This document shows positions 3,947-22,269 of a stretch of DNA of 24,008 nt, piece after piece. Both the position numbers and the translations under genes were made by a program. The stretch comes from an uncultured Flavobacteriales bacterium (GTDB lineage Bacteria > Bacteroidota > Bacteroidia > Flavobacteriales > Crocinitomicaceae). The stretch covers positions 1-24,008 of the forward strand of contig CAMLHZ010000027.1 of the NCBI GenBank assembly GCA_946480085.1, given 5' to 3'. Every line of letters begins with the position of its first letter. Position 1 is the stretch's first letter. Under the pieces are notes generated by a model, which saw only the letters and a program-made list of their open reading frames with translations, made no database searches and was not told the origin of the DNA.

Positions 3947-4741
3947 ATGAGTTATAAGCAACCATACTTTATGGACAAAATAGAAATCAAATCTGTATCT
4001 GAATATTTAGCTCACATACAATCCTTTGAGCAACAAAATATAGCCCAGTGGTTTTTCAGAGGCCAAGAGGATGAAGCTTACGATTTAATTCCGGGACTTT
4101 TTAGAATTAATATTAAAGAGACTCTTACAAATTGGAATGATTTGGAAGAGTATATGCTCAATATATTTCAACGAGAAGCAAGACCTTTTAATGAATTTAA
4201 ATCAGAAGATGATATTGAACTTATTTCTCTAGCTCAACATCATGGACTCCCCACTAGACTTTTAGACTGGTCTATGAACCCACTCATTGCATTATTCTTT
4301 GCTGTTGAGAATTACAATTCAAATGCTGAAAATAGTGCTGTATGGTGTTATGGATTTCCATCGACAAATAATTGTTTCCCTACAAGTACGCGAATTGATA
4401 AAAGATTGACATTAGAAAAAAGTGGGATTATAATATTTCCACACCACATATCTCCAAGAATAACAAATCAATCTGGTTGTTTTACTATACATGAACTTCC
4501 GCAAGGTAAGGAACACTTTATACCATTTAACAAGCAGGATAATATATTTGGAATGTTTGATTTATTCATTATTAATAAAAAACATAGAAAAGAAATATTA
4601 GATCAACTTTATGATCTTGGATATCATCATGGACTAATATATCCTGGGCTTGATGGTATTGCAAAAAGAATCAAATTTGAAGCTGTCACTTCTCACAATC
4701 GATGTAGCAATGAAAGACAGCTGAAAAAAATGTCTGAATAG
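3947..4741 (+). CDS. FRG domain-containing protein, probable defence-associated
   Basis: The protein is 264 residues from ATG 3947. An in-frame ATG at 3971 (MDKIEIKSVSEYLAHI) is an equally good start and is closer to where FRG proteins usually begin. The FRG signature is clear: QWFFRGQ (F37-R38-G39), then the conserved LAQHHGLPTRLLDW (residues 95-108) followed by NPLIALFFAVE, and a C-terminal GYHHGLIYPGLDGIAK block. FRG domains occur in many anti-phage or mobile contexts; their biochemical role is not established to my knowledge. The gene is AT-rich by eye compared with the flanking genes, and an RloC-like ATPase follows in the same direction after 71 bases, suggesting a two-gene unit. No membrane segment or signal peptide is seen. 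Confidence 0.85.
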   Translation: MSYKQPYFMDKIEIKSVSEYLAHIQSFEQQNIAQWFFRGQEDEAYDLIPGLFRINIKETLTNWNDLEEYMLNIFQREARPFNEFKSEDDIELISLAQHHGLPTRLLDWSMNPLIALFFAVENYNSNAENSAVWCYGFPSTNNCFPTSTRIDKRLTLEKSGIIIFPHHISPRITNQSGCFTIHELPQGKEHFIPFNKQDNIFGMFDLFIINKKHRKEILDQLYDLGYHHGLIYPGLDGIAKRIKFEAVTSHNRCSNERQLKKMSE

Positions 4742-4812
4742 ACAGCTTATAACAACAAATAAGCACCAGTTGTAAGCCTTGGAATGACCGCATTAAATAG
4801 ACCAAATACTGA

Positions 4813-7038
4813 ATGATAAAACAAATTGAAATAAAAAATGTAGCAACCTATGACAATCAGGGCGTAAAATTTGACGACTTGAAAGAAGTCAATTTTATAT
4901 ATGGAGCAAATGGTTGCGGAAAGACCACAATTTCAAACTTTGCCCACGACAATTCAGCCCCAAAATACAATTATAGTTCTTTGACTTGGCAAAATGCTTT
5001 AACCTTAAATATTTTGGTTTACAATAAAGAATTTAGAGATCGAAATTTTGGAAAGGGAAAACTAAATGGTGTTTTCACACTTGGCGAAGCTACAGCAGAA
5101 CAAATTAAGTTAATCGAACAAAAGAACGAAGAACTTAAAGTTATTAAAGCTGAAGGAATACAAAAACGAAATACGTTAGATAAACAGAAAGCTGAGGTAG
5201 AAAAATTAGAAAACGAATTTAAAGAAGCTGCTTGGACAAAAGTTTACAAGAAAAATGAAACTATGTTTAAAGAAGCGTTCTCTGGTTTCCTCCAGAAAGA
5301 ATCATTCAAGAACAAATTTTTATATGAATTTTCAAGTAACACTGAACAATTAGAAACCCTTGAAAATCTAAAAGCCAAAGCTGAAACAATTTTTGGTGAA
5401 CAGCCACAAAGAATTGAACCAATAAGCCAAATCTCATTTGAGAGAGTGTTAGAAATTGAAACCAATGAAATTTGGAAGAAGATCATTGTTGGTAAAGCTG
5501 ATGTTGATATTGCCAAGTTGATACAGAAACTAAACATTAACGATTGGGTTAATCAAGGTAGAGAATATATTCAAGGTGACACTTGTCCCTTTTGCCAAGA
5601 AAAAACTATAACAGACAATTTTAAAGCACAGTTAGTGAGCTTTTTCGATGAAACGTATTTAAACGACATCAAGCAACTAAAGGAATTAAAACAAGAATTC
5701 AACACTTTAAATCAAAACATAATAAACGAGCTAAACGGAATTGAAGTCAATCAAAAGGCTTTAAGTAATACCAAACTCGGGATTGATAAGTTTTCAGCTT
5801 ACTTAAAAACACTGATAAGTCAAAACACAACAAATAACGAATTTGTAAGTAACAAAATCAAAGAACCGAGTAGAAGTATTGAGATAATTTCGATTAAGGA
5901 ACAAGCTGATTTAATATCCGAGTTAATCAATCAAGCTAACGTTGAAATTAAAACGCATAATGACATTGTCGCAAACTTTGCGACTGAAAAAAGTAACCTG
6001 ATTAAAGCTGTTTGGAAATTCTTAATTGAAACTCACAATACAGATATTATTGACTTCAACGGAAAAAGAAACGGTTTAAAAAAAGGTATCGAAAGCTTAG
6101 AAATACAGCTAAAAACTAAACAGGACGAATACAAAAAATTAGATGCTGAAATAAAAAGCCTAAATAAGAATGTTACAAGTATTCAACCTACTATTGATGA
6201 AATAAACAGAATATTAAAATCCTATGGTTTTTTAAATTTTGAAATTGTTCCTACCCAAGAAGATGGCTTTTATCAAATTCAACGTGAAGACGGAACTATT
6301 GCTGAAGCAACGCTAAGTGAAGGAGAAATTACATTCATTACTTTTCTGTATTACTTGCAATTGACAAAAGGTGGTGTTTCAGAAGATGAGGTAAACAACG
6401 AAAGAGTATTGGTAATTGACGACCCAATTTCAAGTTTAGATAGCAATGTTTTATTTGTTGTAAGCACGCTCATCAAATACATTATTAAAGGCATCAAAGA
6501 AGACAAAGGGAATGTACGGCAATTAATATTGCTAACTCACAACGTCTATTTTCACAAAGAAGTTTCTTTCATAGACGGAAGGACAAAAACTTGTAATAAG
6601 ACAAACTTTTGGATTTTGAGAAAAAACGAAAAGGTTACAAGTTTACAGAGTTTTGAAATGAATAATCCAATTCAATCTTCATACGAACTTCTATGGCAAG
6701 AATTGAAAAGTGATGAAGTCAAATCAACACTTACAATTCAAAACATAATGCGGAGAATAATTGAAAATTATTTCAAGCTACTAGGCAAATATGGAGACGA
6801 TGATTTAATCCTAAAATTTAAAACCAAAGAAGAACAAGAAATTTGTCGTTCATTGATTTCGTGGATAAATGACGGTTCACACAGTATAAATGACGACTTG
6901 TATGTTGAACTTCAAGACAGGACAATTGAAGCATATAAAAACGTTTTTAAAGATATTTTTATATTGACGAAACACGAAGGACACTACAATATGATGATGA
7001 ACATTACAGAGAACGAAAAAGTAGAAATTGAAATATAA
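4813..7038 (+). CDS. RloC-like AAA_13 ATPase with zinc-hook motif, possible anticodon nuclease
   Basis: The 741-residue protein is an SMC/Rad50-like ABC ATPase with: Walker A GANGCGKTT (31-39), a long Lys/Glu-rich coiled coil, a zinc-hook-like C258-P-F-C261, a second coiled coil (about 270-465), signature LSEGE (501-505), Walker B VLVIDDP (532-538) with D-loop SSLD (540-543), and an H-loop histidine (576). This order and length fit PF13166 and the RloC family, whose members join such an ATPase to a C-terminal tRNA anticodon nuclease. The C-terminal domain holds R647-x3-E651 and H690, similar in order to the Arg-Glu-His triad known for PrrC, but the spacing to His is longer than I recall for PrrC. 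The nuclease call is therefore inference. No restriction-modification genes, common partners of such proteins, are in the window. Confidence 0.85.
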   Translation: MIKQIEIKNVATYDNQGVKFDDLKEVNFIYGANGCGKTTISNFAHDNSAPKYNYSSLTWQNALTLNILVYNKEFRDRNFGKGKLNGVFTLGEATAEQIKLIEQKNEELKVIKAEGIQKRNTLDKQKAEVEKLENEFKEAAWTKVYKKNETMFKEAFSGFLQKESFKNKFLYEFSSNTEQLETLENLKAKAETIFGEQPQRIEPISQISFERVLEIETNEIWKKIIVGKADVDIAKLIQKLNINDWVNQGREYIQGDTCPFCQEKTITDNFKAQLVSFFDETYLNDIKQLKELKQEFNTLNQNIINELNGIEVNQKALSNTKLGIDKFSAYLKTLISQNTTNNEFVSNKIKEPSRSIEIISIKEQADLISELINQANVEIKTHNDIVANFATEKSNLIKAVWKFLIETHNTDIIDFNGKRNGLKKGIESLEIQLKTKQDEYKKLDAEIKSLNKNVTSIQPTIDEINRILKSYGFLNFEIVPTQEDGFYQIQREDGTIAEATLSEGEITFITFLYYLQLTKGGVSEDEVNNERVLVIDDPISSLDSNVLFVVSTLIKYIIKGIKEDKGNVRQLILLTHNVYFHKEVSFIDGRTKTCNKTNFWILRKNEKVTSLQSFEMNNPIQSSYELLWQELKSDEVKSTLTIQNIMRRIIENYFKLLGKYGDDDLILKFKTKEEQEICRSLISWINDGSHSINDDLYVELQDRTIEAYKNVFKDIFILTKHEGHYNMMMNITENEKVEIEI

Positions 7039-7264: not shown

Positions 7265-7301
7265 AAACAAAAAATGTCCGATCCTTATCGAATCAGACAT
7301 T
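7265..7301 (-). terminator. Terminator of the B12 operon
   Basis: On the - strand AATGTC (7301-7296) and GACATT (7278-7273) form the outer stem, CGAT/ATCG an inner stem, and the hairpin is followed by a T-rich run (complement of 7265-7274). It lies 23 bases after the last operon gene. Confidence 0.65.
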
Positions 7302-7323
7302 CCTTTTCATACCAAGAATGCTA

Positions 7324-8295
7324 TCACTCCACAATTAGTCTCTCTGTAGCGCTAGTTCCATTCACATTTAATTGCAGCAAATAGATTCCTTTTTGAAATT
7401 GATTTAGATATATGGTGGTGAGGGTGTTATGTGTTGTTTCGAATAAGGTTTTTCCGTTTAGATCAAGAATTCGGATACTTCCGTTTTCTTCCGACTGAAC
7501 AGTCACAAATTCGTTTGCTGGATTGGGTGAAACTGTAAAATTCAAAACCGATTCTTCTTTCATTCCAAGAACTCCATTGATAATTCCAATCGCGTCCAAA
7601 TCAAATCCTCCAGAATGAAATTCTGTTGGAAATGGATCGTTGATTGGATTTCCGGAACCATCAAGAGTGGTGTGTTCTCCATCAACATCGCCGACAACGT
7701 CAACCAAACGCACGAAGTTGATGTTTTGCAAATCCAGATTGGGAGAACCGGTTAATTCGCTCAAATCGAATGGAGTCCCATAGTTCACACGGTATTTTCC
7801 TGCTAAATTGTTAACCATTCTGCAATCTGAAATGGAAGAGTTGCCAAGCTGTGGAGCCAATGGAATCTCAGAAGTGGAGGGGAAGCGTACAAAGTCAATT
7901 CCGTTTGTGCTGACTTCAACATGCGCAAATTCCATGTATCCATCTACAAAACCGTTTTCAAAAACCGCAAAATCGAACCCCGGACCATCTTGAATCACAT
8001 AATCGAAGGTTAGAGTAGCAACGCCGCTGTCACCCAATGAAACAACTTGTGTTGCATTCGCCATTCCAAAAGCATCATCCAAATCGCCGTAACTGGCATG
8101 ATTCAAATCATCGTAGGTCACAGTTGTATCGTTGATGTTTACAAAGCCGCGTGTGATTGTTCCTCCGGTTGCCCAGGCAATAAAAGATGGACTCGATTTA
8201 TGAATTGCCGTTGTTCCAACACTATCTGGCGATGGAGCGAAACTTTGCGAAAAACCGAAGTTCGAGATGAACAGAAGTGGTAAATATTTAATCAT
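7324..8295 (-). CDS. T9SS-sorted surface protein, last gene of the B12 uptake operon
   Basis: The 323-residue protein has an N-terminal signal peptide (MIKYLPLLFISNFGFSQ), a mature domain with ATQVVSLGDSGVATLTFDYVIQDGPGFDFAVFENGF and an acidic FHSGGFDLDAIGIINGV segment, and a C-terminal T9SS type A sorting domain of about 75 residues (from VLNFTVSPNPANEFVTV to the end, ATERLIVE). The FDFAVFENG type of domain is one I associate with secreted proteins in Bacteroidota cobalamin loci, but I cannot name its family with confidence. Its start ATG overlaps the stop of the DUF5074 gene by 8 bases (ATGATTAA), so it is translationally coupled and under the cobalamin riboswitch. Likely role: a cell-surface component of B12 capture (inference). 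T9SS genes themselves are not in the window. Confidence 0.75.
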   Translation of the reverse strand: MIKYLPLLFISNFGFSQSFAPSPDSVGTTAIHKSSPSFIAWATGGTITRGFVNINDTTVTYDDLNHASYGDLDDAFGMANATQVVSLGDSGVATLTFDYVIQDGPGFDFAVFENGFVDGYMEFAHVEVSTNGIDFVRFPSTSEIPLAPQLGNSSISDCRMVNNLAGKYRVNYGTPFDLSELTGSPNLDLQNINFVRLVDVVGDVDGEHTTLDGSGNPINDPFPTEFHSGGFDLDAIGIINGVLGMKEESVLNFTVSPNPANEFVTVQSEENGSIRILDLNGKTLFETTHNTLTTIYLNQFQKGIYLLQLNVNGTSATERLIVE

Positions 8296-9373
8296 AGAAT
8301 AAAATGCTATTTGGGTTTAGACCAACTGAAAATGTTTGCTCTAAAATTCCGGATGTATTGAAAATGTGAATTTTGCCATTGATGGTATAGCCCATGGCGT
8401 CGCAGATGTAGAATTTATTATTAGATGCTCGGTATTGGATTCCAAAGAGTGTTTCCACATTTGTGAGATCAAAGAAATCTGTAGAGCTGATGGTTTCGCT
8501 TGCTGGATTGAACAATCGTGTATGAACAGTTGATCCGCTAGAACTCACAATGATAAATTGGTTTCCGTATTCCGAAATGGATGAAGCATTGAAGGTGAAA
8601 GTTTCTTCTTTTATTAACGAAACTGGATTGATACGATGCATACGTGCCGGTACGGAACCGTAATCACCACGAGAAATGGCATAGATTTCACCGCTTGCAT
8701 CAACGGCGATGTCGCCCATATTTGGTCCACACGCGATTTTCGTTTCTTCTGTTAACGTGTTTAGTGAAATGACAGAAACGGTAGAATCAACATCCGGGAA
8801 ATTCAATCCGCCCGAATTGCAAACGAACAATCTGTTATTGCTGATGGCCATTCCCTCAGGATTTGCTCCAACCTGAATTCGTTGCGTAATAGCTAAACTT
8901 GCTGTATCGAGAACATCCACATAACCATCGTAACAAGTAATAAATGCTTTTGATCCGTGGAAGGTAATGAAACGTGGTTGTTTCGGAGTTGTCCCATTCA
9001 TCATGCTAATTTGTGTGATGGAATTTCCTGTTGAGGCATTCATCACTTCAATCGTGCTGGAAACATTCACAATGATGTAAATTTTGTTTCCGTAACGCTG
9101 CATGTCGTTTCCGGTATCTCCTAAACCACGATTGGTTTTCTGCTCAAAGAAATTCGAAATACTTTCTCCGCTTGATGTATTCAACCAGCTTAAACTAGCG
9201 TTGTTGTGATTGAAAAGCCCTTCGTTCAAGACAAGAATTCCACCTGTCAAATTGTTCGGAGCTTCTGGTTCCGGTTCCGAAGTATGCTTCTTCTTGCAAC
9301 TAGCTAAGAACAGAATCGAAAAAACAAACGTGAACTTCAGCAAAATTCTTAAATCGAGGCTTTTATATCGCAT
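8288..9373 (-). CDS. DUF5074/YncE-like beta-propeller lipoprotein (BtuG-like B12 capture protein)
   Basis: The 361-residue protein has a lipoprotein signal ending LFLASC (C26 lipidated), followed by KKKHTSEPEPE, a charged linker as seen in surface lipoproteins. The body is a chain of repeats of beta-propeller type: NKIYIIVNVSSTIEVMNASTG, KAFITCYDGYVDVLDT, GANPEGMAISNNRLFVCNSG, GDIAVDASGEIYAISRGDYG, FYICDAMGY. This matches DUF5074/YncE-like proteins. In Bacteroides, BtuG is a seven-bladed surface propeller that binds cobalamin and sits on BtuB. The gene overlaps the receptor gene by 11 bases and the next gene by 8 bases. The cobalamin riboswitch at the operon head supports a BtuG-like role; ligand binding itself is inferred. 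Confidence 0.82.
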   Translation of the reverse strand: MRYKSLDLRILLKFTFVFSILFLASCKKKHTSEPEPEAPNNLTGGILVLNEGLFNHNNASLSWLNTSSGESISNFFEQKTNRGLGDTGNDMQRYGNKIYIIVNVSSTIEVMNASTGNSITQISMMNGTTPKQPRFITFHGSKAFITCYDGYVDVLDTASLAITQRIQVGANPEGMAISNNRLFVCNSGGLNFPDVDSTVSVISLNTLTEETKIACGPNMGDIAVDASGEIYAISRGDYGSVPARMHRINPVSLIKEETFTFNASSISEYGNQFIIVSSSGSTVHTRLFNPASETISSTDFFDLTNVETLFGIQYRASNNKFYICDAMGYTINGKIHIFNTSGILEQTFSVGLNPNSILFYD

Positions 9374-11300
9374 AGGTCAGTTTTATTTGATAATTGAATC
9401 CTGGTAGAACAAAATAACGGATATACTGATTGTACTGATTCGTAATGTTTTTCAGGGAAACATTCAATTTGAGCTGGTGTGCTTTGAAGTTGAACTTATA
9501 AGAACTTCCAAGATCAATGGTATAATAACCGTCTACAATATTGGAAGGAATGTTTTCCTGCAATGCGTAACGGAATCCCTGAAACATGAACAAGGAATAA
9601 ACAGTCCAGTTTTTTTGCGACCAATCCAGCTCGAAACTTCCGCTGGTGAAGGGAATGTAGGTCAATTGATTTCTATAAACTGAACTATTTCGATTACTTA
9701 GATCAATAGCACTTTGAAAGGTGAAATTGGCCGTTTGACCAAGAAACCCGTTTCCGATCTTAATTCGTGATTCATCGTAAATTTCAATTCCAGTTGACTG
9801 CGATTTTCCAATGTTTTGGATACTCCAGACAAATAGATTTTTTGTTGGAATTGCGAGAATCTTGTTCTCGTTATAGGTATAGAATGGCTCAATTCTAAAA
9901 GAGTTGTTCCAATTCTTGAGTTTCCAGTTTATTTTCAGCGGAACAGAAAGAATAGTCGCTTCTTCCGGTTTTAGATCCGTATTCCCAATTTGCTGGTAGT
10001 ACAATTCCGAAAATGTTGGTTGACGAACAGTGTATCTCGCAATGAATCCAGATTCCACATTTTTTGAAAACGTGAAAATGTATTGCAAAGCAGGAAGAAC
10101 ATTCCACGTTTTTCGATGAGCGATTGAGCTTTCATTATCTACATACTGAAATCCAACCTGAAGATCTAATTTTTGCTTCTCCGCTTTAAATTCTGTTGCA
10201 ATAAATTGGTTTAAGATCGTCCGATTTGGATTCCCCGAAATTGTTCCGGAAACAATCTTTTCGGCAGTGTATTCGGAACCAATAGAGGCTTTCAATTTTT
10301 CAGTAAACTGATATGCAAATTGTGATTGCCCATTCAGGTATTGCGTTTTGTAAGTTTGCTCCAAATAGCCTTGCGTATTCAGGTAATTGGAATCGAGGTA
10401 GGTGAGTTGACTTTGCTGAGTGGTGAATTCAGTGAATAGTGAAATGCGGTTTTTTGTGTATTTATGATAAACGGTTCCGGTTAGTTCCTGATTATCCAAA
10501 TATTGTTTGTTGTTAGCATTGTAGAAAACTACAGCGCCAGCCAATTCCTTATCAGACTGGAAATAATTTCCTTTTACCGAAAGGGTATTGTAATCGTTTA
10601 GTTTCCATGTTAGACTTGCTGTTGTAATTAAGTCTTTCAAGGCATTATTTTGTCTGTTTTCATCAATGGTGGTGAAACCATTTCTGTATTGGAAAGGAAA
10701 GTTTCCTTCGTATGTTCTTCCTCTCCCGGTTAAAGTGAAATACACATTCTTGAATCGAAGAGCCGTTCCTAAATCTATAGAATGATATCCAAACGAACCA
10801 TTCTGGTAGCCTAAACTGAATTTATTCTTTTCACTTTGAACAGAATGAATGGTTTTGATCTGAATTAAACTTCCCGACAATTTACTTTGAATCGGAAGTT
10901 CGATATCAGTTCCGTTTTGTCGAATGATCTGCACCGAACGAACAAATTCCGTTGGAGTTGCACTTAAGTCAACGCTTCCTGTTTGTGTAACCGGTTGATT
11001 TTGAAAATCTATAACAATGCTGGAGTGTGCGGCTCCCAAACTTCGGAATCCCGCTGTCTTTAATCCTCCAACATCGCCATAGTTCTTGATTTGCAAACCG
11101 GGCAGCATCATTAGGATGGTTCCGATATCGGCTGCTAATTTGCCCTCAATTTTTGATTGATTCAGTTGAATAGTGGTTATTGAGTTCTTCTTGATCTGTG
11201 AAATCAAAACTTCGTCCAATTCTTTACCAGTCTCTTGTCCAAACAGGGAATGTGGGAGCAAAAGCAACATAAATAATTGAATTGGACGAAGTGTTTTCAA
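9363..11300 (-). CDS. btuB: TonB-dependent receptor, BtuB-like cobalamin transporter
   Basis: The 645-residue protein has a signal peptide (MKTLRPIQLFMLLLLPHSLFGQ), a TonB-box-like segment KELDEVLIS, and a plug domain (about 40-155: LNQSKIEGKLAADIGTILMMLPGLQIKNYG, GGLKTAGFRSLGAAHSSIVIDFQNQPV, EFVRSVQIIRQNG). A 22-strand-type barrel rich in alternating aromatic residues follows and ends in an outer-membrane C-terminal strand, YQIKLTYAI. Length fits BtuB (about 600-700) and is shorter than SusC receptors; the N-terminal carboxypeptidase-like domain of SusC is absent. It follows the DUF4465 gene by 4 bases and overlaps the DUF5074 lipoprotein gene. The substrate is inferred from the cobalamin riboswitch and the partner genes. 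The gene symbol is by analogy. Confidence 0.85.
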   Translation of the reverse strand: MKTLRPIQLFMLLLLPHSLFGQETGKELDEVLISQIKKNSITTIQLNQSKIEGKLAADIGTILMMLPGLQIKNYGDVGGLKTAGFRSLGAAHSSIVIDFQNQPVTQTGSVDLSATPTEFVRSVQIIRQNGTDIELPIQSKLSGSLIQIKTIHSVQSEKNKFSLGYQNGSFGYHSIDLGTALRFKNVYFTLTGRGRTYEGNFPFQYRNGFTTIDENRQNNALKDLITTASLTWKLNDYNTLSVKGNYFQSDKELAGAVVFYNANNKQYLDNQELTGTVYHKYTKNRISLFTEFTTQQSQLTYLDSNYLNTQGYLEQTYKTQYLNGQSQFAYQFTEKLKASIGSEYTAEKIVSGTISGNPNRTILNQFIATEFKAEKQKLDLQVGFQYVDNESSIAHRKTWNVLPALQYIFTFSKNVESGFIARYTVRQPTFSELYYQQIGNTDLKPEEATILSVPLKINWKLKNWNNSFRIEPFYTYNENKILAIPTKNLFVWSIQNIGKSQSTGIEIYDESRIKIGNGFLGQTANFTFQSAIDLSNRNSSVYRNQLTYIPFTSGSFELDWSQKNWTVYSLFMFQGFRYALQENIPSNIVDGYYTIDLGSSYKFNFKAHQLKLNVSLKNITNQYNQYIRYFVLPGFNYQIKLTYAI

Positions 11301-11304
11301 TGGA

Positions 11305-12279
11305 TTATTTCTTTACGAACTTTCCTGCAGCTACTGTTGAAGCAGAAACCACTTTGTAAGTGTAAGTTCCAACAGCCAAAGCAGAAATATCGATAGTTGT
11401 TTTACCATCTACTTTTTCTGCAGCTACTAATTGTCCGTATGTGTTGTAAATCGAGATTTCTCCTTCAACTCCGGCAAAAGTAATTTCTGTTGAAGCCGGA
11501 TTCGGATAAACCGAGTAAGCTGTTTGATTCAATTCTTCAGTTGCAACAACATCATAAGATAAATTGTCCAAAGCAAAATAAGCAGGAGTATTCATTCCCC
11601 ATTGTCCAACATCTGAAGATTCTAAAGCGAATTCCAGGAATTGTACTTGTCCAAGTGGAGAAAGGTCAACAGATTCCCAGGTGTTCAAAATGTAATCCTG
11701 AGAATTATCCGCAAAACGGTAATCAGCTAAATAGAAAACCACAGTATCGGTCACTGCTGAATTTCCGTCAAGACCAATGATCAATAAACGGAACCAATCT
11801 TCACCATTTGTCCCGTCAGGATCTCCGTTTGCATCATTTACTGAACCAAATTGTTTCCCGAATGAATCGCCATTCAACATTGAAAGTCCGGCGTAAGTTG
11901 TATTTGTAATATCGATTGAAGAAACAATCTTCTCTGCTCCAAAATCAATGCTTCCACCATAGTTCAAAGCATATTTACTACTGTTTGAACCTGTTCCTGC
12001 GTAAGAAGAGTAATCGTTTGAACTTCCTGGAGTTGTTACATCAGTCGCATTCGAGTAAATGAAACCAGATGACCAATAGTCACCCCACTGAGATGTTGTG
12101 TACGTGTTTTCGAAGAATAAACCGTTAGAAGTAAAACCTCCAGATTGGTCAATTCCGAACCAAGCTGTATCTACTCCTGGAAGAGTAAGATCTTCAAATG
12201 TGATGGTAGTTTGTGCAGAAGCACTGTTTGCAATAAATCCGAAAACGATCGGAAGAGCGAACATGTAAATTTTTTTCAT
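11305..12279 (-). CDS. DUF4465 family protein with T9SS sorting domain, first gene of the B12 operon
   Basis: The protein is 324 residues from ATG 12279 (MKKIYMFALPIVFGFIANSASAQ, a good signal peptide); the in-frame extension to 12318 is unlikely because it would place 13 residues before the signal peptide. The mature part carries DUF4465-like features: TITFEDL, DTAWFG, GGFTSNGLFFENTY, WGDYWSSGFIYSNATDVTTPGSSNDYSSYAG, then WFRLLIIGLDGN and WESVDLSPLGQVQFLEFALESSDVGQWGMNTPAYFALDNL. The last about 75 residues are a T9SS type A domain (YPNPASTEITFAG ... GKFVKK). DUF4465 proteins occur in cobalamin-regulated loci, and I recall that BtuH, a B12-binding lipoprotein of Bacteroides, belongs here. In this copy the lipid anchor is replaced by a T9SS tail. 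Confidence 0.85.
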   Translation of the reverse strand: MKKIYMFALPIVFGFIANSASAQTTITFEDLTLPGVDTAWFGIDQSGGFTSNGLFFENTYTTSQWGDYWSSGFIYSNATDVTTPGSSNDYSSYAGTGSNSSKYALNYGGSIDFGAEKIVSSIDITNTTYAGLSMLNGDSFGKQFGSVNDANGDPDGTNGEDWFRLLIIGLDGNSAVTDTVVFYLADYRFADNSQDYILNTWESVDLSPLGQVQFLEFALESSDVGQWGMNTPAYFALDNLSYDVVATEELNQTAYSVYPNPASTEITFAGVEGEISIYNTYGQLVAAEKVDGKTTIDISALAVGTYTYKVVSASTVAAGKFVKK

Positions 12280-12353
12280 ACGCTTATTAAGCATTAAATA
12301 ATTAATAATCGGAAGCAAAACTTCCAGTAATAAAGCGAATGAAACTTGTGAAA

Positions 12354-12435
12354 AAAGAGTGACAATACAGTCCCGCTTATGCGGAGCGTGTAACTGACGT
12401 TGACTTTAATCTGAAGTCTTCATTCAATATTGTCA
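12354..12435 (-). terminator. Riboswitch expression platform: terminator hairpin
   Basis: On the - strand TGACAATA (12435-12428) pairs perfectly with TATTGTCA (12367-12360), enclosing an inner CCGC/GCGG hairpin, and is followed by CTCTTTTTT. The upstream arm starts one base after the B12 box. This is the layout of a transcription-terminating cobalamin riboswitch. Confidence 0.65.
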
Positions 12436-12436
12436 T

Positions 12437-12600
12437 GGCAGGTATTCTGACTCCCTTCAGTCTGTTTCGTCTTCCCATCATTGCGCCTTAGGCGGATCAA
12501 CAGTGACATTTTGAAACAGTATTAACGAAGGTTACAGCTGCAGATACAGTTTCGGATTCTCACCGAATTCCCTTTTCATTTCTAGAGTTTTACCTCGAGA
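12437..12600 (-). ncRNA. Cobalamin (B12/AdoCbl) riboswitch
   Basis: Reading leftward, the conserved elements occur in the expected order: AAAAGGGAA, then TTCGGTGAGAATCCG, a GTCACTG version of the GCCACTG core, a GGGAAGACG segment, and the B12 box AGTCAGAATACCTGCC (12452-12437). It lies about 160 bases upstream of the first operon gene and is preceded by a promoter. Binding of cobalamin should switch the operon off. Element sequences and spacing are distinctive, so identity is nearly certain; class (AdoCbl or other cobalamin) is not assigned. Confidence 0.95.
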
Positions 12601-12616
12601 ACAACCAATAACGTTG

Positions 12617-12649
12617 CAAATATACTCAAATGCCGTTATTGGTTTCAAA
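12617..12649 (-). promoter_or_regulatory. Bacteroidota-type promoter of the B12 operon
   Basis: On the - strand TTTG (12649-12646) is followed after 21 bases by TATATTTG (12624-12617), matching the -33 TTTG and -7 TAnnTTTG boxes. Transcription would begin just before the riboswitch. An exact 11-bp inverted repeat (12603-12613 with 12634-12644, ACCAATAACG core) brackets the -7 box and could be a regulator site. Confidence 0.6.
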
Positions 12650-19958: not shown

Positions 19959-20037
19959 GTTGGCATTTCAACCTTAAATGGATTCTTTGTAATAAAAACA
20001 AAAGTTAATGTGTAAATTCATTGCAAACTATTGCAAT

Positions 20038-22269
20038 ATGAAAAAACTCCTTATTTTTCCATTGACCTTTTTTGCCCTAAATCAAGCTTCGGCACAAACC
20101 TTTAAAATCGTTTCTTCCTCTTCAAAAGAAATGATCGTTGAGGTTGAATTTCAAAACCAAAATTGGCAATCCACAGAACTGAATGGTGAGCAGTATCTTG
20201 ATTTTTCGAGTTTAAAAACTCCGTTAACAAGTGAAAAAGGTGCTCCTGCAGTTCCAATGTACCACACAACGATTCAACTTCCTGCCAAAGGAAATCCAAC
20301 TGTTGAAGTGGTTAGTGATGAGTATGTAGATTACCTTTTTAGTAAAGTTCTTCCTTCTAAAGGAAATTTAAAGAGAAATGTGAGCCCATCAAGTGTTCCT
20401 TATTCTTTCGGTTCGGTTTATCAATCGAATCAGTTTTATCCGGGAACATTGGGTGATTTGGAAGATCCGTTCTTATGGCGTTCTGCAAGAGGAATTGTTC
20501 TATCGGTTTCTCCTATCCAGTTTAATCCGTCAACTTCAACGGTTCAATTTCACAATAAAATGACGTTCAGGATTCGTTATAATGAAGCGTCTGCAGGAAT
20601 GAATGAATTGAGTGAAACGGTTGCAGATCCTGCAATGCAGAAATTACAGCAACGTACGTTTTTAAACCATTCAGTTGAAAAATATACTGTTCTTGAAGAG
20701 CAGGGTGATTTACTGATCATTACAACCAGCGATTTAACTGACGAGATCCAGCCTTTAGTGAATTGGAAGAATCAGAAAGGAATCAAGACGACTGTTGTGA
20801 CAACGGCTGTAACAGGAACTACTGATACGGACATTAAAGCATATTTGACAACAGCTTACCAATCCAATCCAAATCTTGTATATGTTTTGTTGGTTGGAGA
20901 TCATGCTGATGTTCCTTCTCACACTTACGGAAATTCGGGTGGTGAAGAATTGTGGTCAGATAGTTATTACGGACAACTTTCTGGCGGTGCTACTGATTTT
21001 TACCCTGAATTGTTCATTGGACGTTTTTCAGGTTCGGCTTCTCAAATTACAACTCAGGTTGATCGAACCTTGGAATACGAAAAGAATCCGGCTGCCGGTG
21101 ATTGGATGGAAAAAGCAATTGGTCTTGGATCTAATGAAGGTGACGGAATTGGTGATGACGACGAGCCGGATTGGCAGCACCTGAGAAATATCCGAACCGT
21201 TTTGATGAATTATGGCTATTCAGCCGTTTCAGAGTTTTACGATGGAAATCATGGTGGTGATGACGCATCTGGTGATCCAAGTTCGACAATTATTCTTCCT
21301 GTTGTAAATGCTGGAGTTGGTTTGTTTAATTACACTGGTCATGGAGCACAAAACGTTTGTGTTACAGGTAACTTTAGTTCAACTAACGTAAATCAGGCAT
21401 CAAATAATGGATTTTATCCTTTTGTAATTTCTGTAGCTTGTAATAATGGAACATTTACATCAGGAACTTGTATTTCTGAAGCCTGGATGTCGTCTACAAA
21501 TAATAATACGCCGGCAGGAGCAATTGCTGCAGCAGGTTCTTCTATTTTAATGAACTGGGCCGAACCAATGCAAACGCAAGACGAAATGGCGGAGATCATT
21601 GCTGAAAACTATCCTTCTAACAAGAAAGAATCTCTTGGCGGATTGTTCTACAACAGTCAATGTTCTATGTTGGAATCATATCCTGGTTCTGGTGGAAAAG
21701 AAGTGATGCAAACGTGGGTTTTATTCGGAGATCCATCTGCTGTATTCAGAAATAAGCAAACAATGCCAATCGTTATTTCTCATACGCAGAACGTGAACAA
21801 CGGAGCAACTTCAATCCTTGTAAATTGTGATGTAGAGGATTGTATGGTAGCGATTTCGCAAAACAATGTTCTTTTAGGAACAGCCATGTCAAATGGTGGA
21901 AGCGCAACGGTTAATTTCCCGGCTTTGGTAACGAACGATCCAATTATGGTAACAGTTACGAAGCAAAATCATATTTCTTACCAAGATCATGTTCAAGTTG
22001 GAAACGGTCCGGTTGGATTGGATGAAAACCTTGACTTGTTCACCGTTTATCCAGTTCCTACAAATGATAACTTAACTGTTCAAACGAATTCAAGCTCGTT
22101 GGAAACAATTGAGTTGATAGATATGAATGGTGTTGTAGTTGCTACGATTAAAGCAGCTGAAAATGGAACAACTACTATTTCTGTTGGACACTTGTCAGCA
22201 GGAAATTACGTAATGAAACTTTCCGGAAGCGGAATAACTTCAAGAAAATTGGTGCAAATAATCAAGTAA
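20038..22269 (+). CDS. Secreted gingipain-like C25 cysteine peptidase with T9SS sorting domain
   Basis: The protein is 743 residues from ATG 20038 (MKKLLIFPLTFFALNQASAQ, signal peptide); the in-frame ATG at 20008 would add 10 residues ahead of it. A propeptide-like domain runs to about 210. The caspase-like C25 domain follows (about 220-580): DLLIITTSDLTDEIQPLVNWKNQKGIKTTVV, VLLVGDHADVPSH, DFYPELFIGRFSGS, catalytic His435 in NYTGHGA and Cys468 in SVACNNGTF, and QTWVLFGDPSAVFRN. A beta-sandwich part (IVISHTQNVNNGATSILVNCDVEDCMVAISQNNVLLGTA) and a T9SS type A tail (VYPVPTNDNLTVQ ... SRKLVQIIK) end it. It should be exported by T9SS as a protease. It is too short and differs from PorU, which also has a C25 domain. 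Monocistronic, with a terminator after it. Confidence 0.92.
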   Translation: MKKLLIFPLTFFALNQASAQTFKIVSSSSKEMIVEVEFQNQNWQSTELNGEQYLDFSSLKTPLTSEKGAPAVPMYHTTIQLPAKGNPTVEVVSDEYVDYLFSKVLPSKGNLKRNVSPSSVPYSFGSVYQSNQFYPGTLGDLEDPFLWRSARGIVLSVSPIQFNPSTSTVQFHNKMTFRIRYNEASAGMNELSETVADPAMQKLQQRTFLNHSVEKYTVLEEQGDLLIITTSDLTDEIQPLVNWKNQKGIKTTVVTTAVTGTTDTDIKAYLTTAYQSNPNLVYVLLVGDHADVPSHTYGNSGGEELWSDSYYGQLSGGATDFYPELFIGRFSGSASQITTQVDRTLEYEKNPAAGDWMEKAIGLGSNEGDGIGDDDEPDWQHLRNIRTVLMNYGYSAVSEFYDGNHGGDDASGDPSSTIILPVVNAGVGLFNYTGHGAQNVCVTGNFSSTNVNQASNNGFYPFVISVACNNGTFTSGTCISEAWMSSTNNNTPAGAIAAAGSSILMNWAEPMQTQDEMAEIIAENYPSNKKESLGGLFYNSQCSMLESYPGSGGKEVMQTWVLFGDPSAVFRNKQTMPIVISHTQNVNNGATSILVNCDVEDCMVAISQNNVLLGTAMSNGGSATVNFPALVTNDPIMVTVTKQNHISYQDHVQVGNGPVGLDENLDLFTVYPVPTNDNLTVQTNSSSLETIELIDMNGVVVATIKAAENGTTTISVGHLSAGNYVMKLSGSGITSRKLVQIIK

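What the first reader, a model, noticed from the sequence alone, without database searches (positions are those of the whole stretch)
7265..12649. Cobalamin-riboswitch operon whose surface binders are T9SS cargo rather than lipoproteins
One leftward unit holds a clear cobalamin riboswitch, a DUF4465 protein, a BtuB-like receptor, a DUF5074/BtuG-like lipoprotein and a FAVFENG-type protein, with 4-base gaps or short overlaps throughout. The first and last proteins end in T9SS type A sorting domains. The Bacteroides accessory binders (BtuG, BtuH) are, as I recall, lipoproteins. Here two parts appear to be sent out by type IX secretion, hinting at a different way of presenting B12-binding proteins at the cell surface or shedding them to scavenge the vitamin.
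Basis: partly seen in the sequence, partly recalled or inferred. Interest (0 to 1): 0.72.

Follow-up and report, generated by a model that had tools for sequence, protein, structure and literature searches.

The report
T9SS-delivered vitamin B12 capture operon
A B12-controlled bacterial operon pairs the usual B12 gate and lid with two extra, predicted B12-catching proteins that carry type IX secretion tails instead of lipid anchors, and one of them looks like a distant relative of the gut B12 protein BtuH.

Summary
Minus-strand 12624-7324 is one tight unit: Rfam cobalamin riboswitch, DUF4465 protein with T9SS tail, BtuB-type receptor, BtuG lipoprotein, and a "FAVFENG" protein with T9SS tail. 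What I did not find in print is the last gene. Besides its tail FAVFENG matches no Pfam family over cut-off, but a confident model of its domain best matches the B12-binding domains of BtuH2 and BtuGH, a family profile hits BtuGH there by sequence, and the invariant FAVFENG Asn aligns with the BtuH2 Asn that contacts B12 phosphate. Of the best 80 loci found through FAVFENG alone, 71 have BtuB, BtuG or DUF4465 within 3 kb and 53 have a cobalamin riboswitch near the operon start; 76 of 81 close copies match the T9SS-tail model, but only 11 of 22 of a mostly distant set. I read it as a T9SS-exported, BtuH-related B12-capture protein beside a lipidated BtuG lid. B12 binding by FAVFENG, anchoring versus shedding, and B12-responsive expression are untested.

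The parts
12617..12624 (-). promoter-like TATATTTG
   Evidence: Sequence; fits the Bacteroidota -7 element TAnnTTTG (consensus recalled, not from a call). One search lists an overlapping TTGAAA-18-TATATT pair, but the region holds no more promoter-like sites (14) than shuffles (mean 15.9).
12420..12624 (-). cobalamin riboswitch aptamer
   Evidence: RF00174, 84.4 bits, E 8.9e-20, complete.
12351..12435 (-). possible expression platform: TGACAATA...TATTGTCA stem, then a run of six T
   Evidence: Read by eye and present in the minimum-energy fold, whose energy does not beat shuffles (z -0.47). It overlaps the 3' end of the aptamer, so the direction of switching is not settled.
11305..12279 (-). 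DUF4465 (BtuJ-type) protein with T9SS type A sorting tail
   Evidence: PF14717 1.6e-48, PF18962 1.9e-10; TIGR04183; PDB 9fct BtuJ1 E 1.1e-16; keeps the equivalents of BtuJ1 Tyr146, Asn241, Thr242 and Tyr245 (counted by eye in the alignment; residues named, where the two Asn numbers appear swapped).
9363..11300 (-). BtuB-type TonB-dependent cobalamin receptor
   Evidence: 8blw_A BtuB1 E 3.2e-45; TIGR01779 E 4.3e-23, below its equivalog cut-off; Plug domain just over cut-off (24.5 of 23.9 bits).
8288..9373 (-). BtuG-type beta-propeller lipoprotein (DUF5074)
   Evidence: 8blw_B BtuG1 E 3.1e-61; PF16819; lipobox LASC.
7324..8295 (-). FAVFENG protein: BtuH-related jelly-roll domain with T9SS type A sorting tail
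7268..7300 (-). hairpin ATGTCTGAT...ATCGGACAT followed by T-run, likely operon terminator
   Evidence: Read by eye; not listed by the scan, whose loop limit is 8 bases (this loop has 9).

Best explanation
This is a cobamide-uptake operon of a Fluviicola-like bacterium (Crocinitomicaceae), controlled by a cobalamin riboswitch. BtuB is the TonB-driven gate and BtuG its lipid-anchored lid, as in B. theta. Two further B12-capture proteins, a BtuJ-type DUF4465 protein and a BtuH-related FAVFENG protein, are exported through the type IX secretion system and held on, or released from, the cell surface by way of their C-terminal tails; they bind cobamides outside the cell and pass them to BtuG-BtuB. 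Shown here: riboswitch, domains, tails, lipobox, gene order, recurrence of the arrangement in other genomes, and homology of FAVFENG to the BtuH domain. Shown by others: B12 binding by BtuG, BtuH and DUF4465 proteins, a Fluviicola DUF4465 among them. Inferred: B12 binding by FAVFENG, T9SS export in this organism, hand-over to BtuG-BtuB, and repression by B12.
Confidence: 0.72

Rival explanations
1. FAVFENG is a T9SS-exported jelly-roll that binds something else, for example surface polysaccharide or a partner protein, and helps the B12 complex only as scaffold or anchor.
For: The fold is a discoidin/CBM32-like jelly-roll; six of eight BtuH2 contact residues are not matched; relatives with the same core occur outside B12 operons. 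B. theta has an accessory protein in such an operon, BtuL, for which no cobalamin binding was seen (PMC12751083).
Against: BtuH2 and BtuGH outrank the CBM32 structures, and the Asn shared with BtuH is absent from the four relatives outside B12 operons that were read.
Confidence: 0.2
2. An ordinary lipoprotein-type Btu operon in which the tails are incidental: the proteins stay periplasmic or are inactive T9SS relics.
For: A periplasmic targeting signal is reported for 170 of 824 DUF4465 sequences; the tail call in distant FAVFENG relatives is weak (11 of 22).
Against: Tails are kept in 76 of 81 and 39 of 40 close relatives, no convincing lipobox was found, and SprA is present in 28 of 28 genomes tested.
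Confidence: 0.06
3. The operon captures a corrinoid other than B12, or a related tetrapyrrole.
For: BtuB-type sequence similarity does not fix the ligand, and the receptor is below the B12 equivalog cut-off.
Against: The complete cobalamin riboswitch and the BtuG and DUF4465 homology point to cobamides.
Confidence: 0.05

Closest known systems
B. theta BtuB-BtuG complexes (8BLW; PMC10404256, seen as search listing only)
   Same: TonB-dependent receptor next to a beta-propeller lipoprotein lid.
   Different: Here the extra binders carry T9SS tails.
BtuJ / DUF4465 (9FCT, 9I2L, 9HMU; PMC12751083, PMC13398666, sections and passages)
   Same: Same domain and B12-contact residues; a Fluviicola taffensis member has been shown to bind B12; C-terminal extracellular targeting motifs are already counted in the family.
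   Different: BtuJ1 and BtuJ2 are lipoproteins found on vesicles; this one has a T9SS tail.
BtuH (BtuH2 7BIZ, BtuGH 8BLW_B; PMC8941943, one section and passages)
   Same: FAVFENG shares the fold, the SLG..G...G.DF....N.F core and the operon partners.
   Different: FAVFENG's domain is about 226 residues, has no PKD or propeller partner domain, matches only two of eight published contact residues, and ends in a T9SS tail instead of starting with a lipobox.
Flavobacterium psychrophilum cobalamin-riboswitch TonB transporter (PMC9723704, one passage)
   Same: Cobalamin riboswitch upstream of a TonB-dependent transporter in a flavobacterium.
   Different: The passage does not mention accessory binders or T9SS cargo.

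Membership tests
Cobalamin riboswitch (RF00174) | covariance-model score over the gathering threshold | tested here: met
   84.4 bits vs 31.5, full length
Cobalamin riboswitch (RF00174) | expression controlled by cobalamin | not testable with these tools
   needs expression data
DUF4465 / BtuJ | PF14717 over cut-off | tested here: met
   165.8 bits vs 25
DUF4465 / BtuJ | B12-contact residues Tyr146, Asn241, Thr242, Tyr245 | tested here: met
   NTTY and MNTPAY aligned to BtuJ1 (residues)
DUF4465 / BtuJ | binds B12 | not testable with these tools
   shown for a F. taffensis member by others
BtuG | homology to BtuG propeller plus lipobox | tested here: met
   E 3.1e-61, LASC
BtuB | closest solved relative is a BtuB; TonB-B12 equivalog model | tested here: inconclusive
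   8blw_A is the only hit, E 3.2e-45; TIGR01779 matched but far below its cut-off
BtuH (for FAVFENG) | BtuH-domain homology by sequence | tested here: met
   A5 vs 8blw_B 1.3e-6, hhalign 4e-5 and 1.7e-8; single-sequence phmmer and profiles A1 and A3 did not reach it
BtuH (for FAVFENG) | BtuH-domain fold | tested here: met
BtuH (for FAVFENG) | the eight published B12-contact residues | tested here: inconclusive
   Asn399 and Phe401 equivalents present; Gln333 equivalent absent in the window; five not alignable
BtuH (for FAVFENG) | surface lipoprotein | tested here: not met
   signal peptide without lipobox, T9SS tail instead; hence called BtuH-related, not BtuH
T9SS type A cargo | N-terminal signal peptide and TIGR04183 tail over cut-off | tested here: met
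   tails; signal peptides judged by eye
T9SS type A cargo | host encodes a T9SS | tested here: inconclusive
   no genome for the window; SprA in 28 of 28 other genomes with FAVFENG

The most novel reading that the evidence does not exclude
FAVFENG founds a large, unnamed family of T9SS-exported, BtuH-related B12-capture proteins spread over Flavobacteriales, Bacteroidales, Chitinophagales and deeper Bacteroidota. Cobamide-capture domains (BtuH-type, BtuJ-type, even BtuG-type propellers) are swapped between lipid anchors and T9SS tails according to what the cell can do, and part of this cargo is shed as soluble 'cobalophores' that collect B12 away from the cell.
Probability: 0.25. Interest if true: 0.72.

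Novelty: new variant of a known kind. Interest (0 to 1): 0.52.

Why it matters
It gives a candidate function to a widespread protein for which Pfam shows only the secretion tail (115 of the 120 relatives listed show that tail alone and 5 show nothing), links it to BtuH (reported in 2022 to have no known structural homologs), and suggests that B12-scavenging operons outside the gut use another route to the surface. Whether vitamin-binding proteins are kept or shed becomes directly testable in T9SS model strains.

Tried and rejected
Single-sequence search of FAVFENG against PDB gave two weak hits (E 0.08 and 0.65), both at the tail; profile A1 hit mainly tails and A3 only one unrelated chain at E 0.15. 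The link to BtuH appeared only with the mixed profile A5 and with the fold. A first model that included tail and signal peptide was poor (pLDDT 71.8), and its match list was filled by tails and other small beta-sandwiches, PAPP-A, CBM-like and GH2 domains. I considered that FAVFENG might be a DUF4465 relative: hhalign gives nothing. I considered that it might be restricted to B12 operons: it is not, because A5 also picks up L144, L149, L153 and L154; L144, L149 and L154 look like OmpA fusions by eye. L144 and L149 were dropped from the BtuH alignment (A6 to A7); L153 and L154 were never in it. All four lack the Asn. L093 was left out of A4, L003 out of A9. Lipobox pattern hits in five FAVFENG proteins were judged by eye to be stray Cys in signal peptides. 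In one search the script missed the riboswitch of seven loci because it took an upstream receptor gene into the operon; I added these by hand from its printed positions. Papers: PMC13398666 outline, Results, Discussion and passages; PMC12751083 section 8 and passages; PMC8941943 section 8 and passages; passages only of PMC12578637, PMC9723704, PMC3953431, PMC11891782, PMC8055020; PMC8986121 one reference-list passage; all others as search listings.

Full report
What is there. The window is from a Fluviicola-like Crocinitomicaceae bacterium, judged by the named close relatives of its proteins; no whole genome is held for it. On the minus strand a complete cobalamin riboswitch (12624-12420) is followed by four tightly packed genes: DUF4465 with a T9SS tail (12279-11305), a BtuB-type receptor (11300-9363), a BtuG-type lipoprotein (9373-8288) and the FAVFENG protein with a T9SS tail (8295-7324). 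The receptor and the lipoprotein have their best solved relatives in one complex, BtuB1-BtuG1 of B. theta (8BLW).

DUF4465. The first protein is BtuJ-type. It aligns with BtuJ1 (9FCT, E 1.1e-16) and keeps the equivalents of Tyr146, Asn241, Thr242 and Tyr245 (counted; residues named). [quoted passage not shown] that IPR026444 is the T9SS tail is recalled). PMC13398666 reports B12 binding by six further family members, one from Fluviicola taffensis. Its discussion calls over 70% of the family lipoproteins and the remainder periplasmic, and the words T9SS, type IX, secretion and sorting do not occur in its main text.

Binding site. PMC8941943 names eight residues of BtuH2 that contact B12; all eight fall on the right letters of the 7biz chain with one constant offset. 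Through A7 and the profile alignments the Asn of FAVFENG's FENGF lies on Asn399, which contacts the phosphate, and the Phe on Phe401, which packs on the lower ligand. The Asn is present in 82 of 82 close and 11 of 11 distant family members, the Phe in 77 of 82 and 11 of 11; in BtuH proteins the Phe is Tyr in 2 of 10; the four superfamily members read outside B12 operons lack the Asn. The comparison with those four was made after the motif had been seen. A Gln like Gln333 follows a similar PxxG motif in 35 of 82 close relatives but not in the window (matched by pattern, not by alignment). The other five contact residues could not be aligned. So the site is partly shared, not proven.

Context across genomes. 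In 71 of 80 at least one of BtuB, BtuG or DUF4465 lies within 3 kb on the same strand (BtuG 62, BtuB 61, DUF4465 25). A profile made from 21 riboswitches, some of them from these very operons, finds one within 1.5 kb upstream of the first operon gene in 46 of 80 loci (L058 and L069 partial), and in 7 more (L004, L007, L011, L014, L016, L026, L028) between an upstream receptor gene and DUF4465, 53 of 80 in all. Of the remaining 27, 9 start within 400 bases of the locus edge and 18 have none in that place (L080 has one about 1.9 kb upstream). The Rfam model itself finds a riboswitch in 7 of 7 of these loci given to it and in 7 of 7 of the 20 fetched stretches given to it, four with BtuH and three with distant FAVFENG. 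In draws from the phylum, A3 matches 37 of 296 genomes and A5 60 of 395: 9 strong (E below 1e-75), 36 intermediate, 15 weak. Of the 30 best A5 matches kept as loci, 21 have BtuB or BtuG within about 1.5 kb. Fourteen of the 15 weak ones were fetched: ten are BtuH-type proteins beside BtuB/BtuG or a propeller gene, and four are other proteins.

Anchors. NCBI's tail model matches 76 of 81 close FAVFENG proteins (window and loci; L003, cut by a contig end, left out), 39 of 40 DUF4465 proteins (both at E 0.001), and 11 of 22 in a set of 21 distant and one close FAVFENG protein (E 0.01). My own tail profile, built from these families and so partly circular, gave 79 of 82 and 39 of 40. In the draw (296 genomes, 9 with PF14717, ten places) four DUF4465 proteins have the tail, three have a lipobox and three were not resolved, so both anchors are in use. 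The BtuG lids without tail have a lipobox by pattern in 47 of 59 full-length cases, and the other 12 show a Cys after a hydrophobic stretch by eye. Nine loci carry a T9SS-tailed BtuG-like propeller just before FAVFENG. Of the ten BtuH proteins nine have a lipobox by pattern and the tenth (L141) by eye; six of these ten loci also carry a 748-804-residue protein with a weak BtuG-like match and a T9SS tail. SprA, the T9SS channel (function recalled), is found in 28 of 28 tested genomes with FAVFENG, in 8 of 10 with BtuH lipoproteins, and in 0 of the 14 control genomes. In the genomes tested, then, FAVFENG goes with SprA, while lipid anchoring occurs with or without it.

Mechanism. Most likely the lipid-anchored BtuG closes over BtuB as in B. 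theta, and the T9SS-exported DUF4465 and FAVFENG proteins act as outer B12 collectors. Type A tails usually lead to attachment to anionic lipopolysaccharide or to release after tail cleavage (recalled); the sequence does not say which. For B. theta, vesicles carrying BtuJ are proposed to act like siderophores, which makes a shed collector plausible here. Repression by B12 is expected from the riboswitch class (recalled); the hairpin after the aptamer does not settle the direction.

Novelty. I searched for BtuG with T9SS, type IX secretion with cobalamin riboswitch, T9SS with cobalamin, TonB-dependent and Flavobacteri, type IX secretion with vitamin B12, surface and cobamide, vitamin B12 with T9SS and BtuB, Fluviicola with vitamin B12 and secretion system, DUF4465 with cobalamin (3 papers, 2 listed) and BtuH alone (48 papers, 15 listed, many of them a hospital's initials). 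No listing or passage that I saw describes a T9SS-borne BtuH relative; most papers behind the listings were not opened, and subscription papers are mostly outside that library. [quoted passage not shown] theta. I therefore score a new variant of a known kind: known binders, a route already counted for one of them, and one BtuH-related family whose link and route I did not find described.

Noticed in passing
window 3947-7038 (+): Two-gene pair beside the operon: FRG-domain protein and AAA_13 ATPase; both match PADLOC candidate defence families (PDC-S15 E 2.1e-75, PDC-S06 E 1e-270).
   Followed up: partly
window 20008-22269 (+): Gingipain-like C25 peptidase with propeptide and T9SS tail, a further hint that the host has a T9SS.
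   Followed up: no
L010, L019, L031, L034, L043, L051, L052, L075, L078: A BtuG-like propeller with a T9SS tail sits directly before FAVFENG; in seven of the nine a tail-less BtuG is also seen.
   Followed up: partly
L143, L145, L146, L148, L150, L151: Next to the BtuH lipoprotein lies a protein of 748-804 residues with a weak BtuG-like match and a T9SS tail.
   Followed up: partly
P0125, P0135, P0140: DUF4465 proteins of about 540 residues with two DUF4465 domains in tandem plus a T9SS tail (by eye in the alignment).
   Followed up: no
distant FAVFENG proteins in alignment A11: 21 of 22 match the NCBIfam model of Leptospira LIC_13355 lipoproteins at E 0.01 (best 9e-12), as do 15 of 81 close ones at E 0.001; in a draw of 61 genomes none of 7 matches reached its cut-off. 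No B12 link for LIC_13355 appeared in the passages read.
   Followed up: partly
L144, L149, L153, L154: Proteins with the same jelly-roll core but without the FEN Asn, with no B12 gene found in the stretch; L144, L149 and L154 look like OmpA fusions by eye.
   Followed up: partly
L001, L061: Record titles name Glaciecola amylolytica and a Saccharospirillaceae MAG, odd for a Bacteroidota-type operon; mislabelled record, mixed bin or transfer was not checked.
   Followed up: no
L010 10890-11288 (-): A tmRNA gene lies about 0.6 kb downstream of the FAVFENG gene.
   Followed up: no
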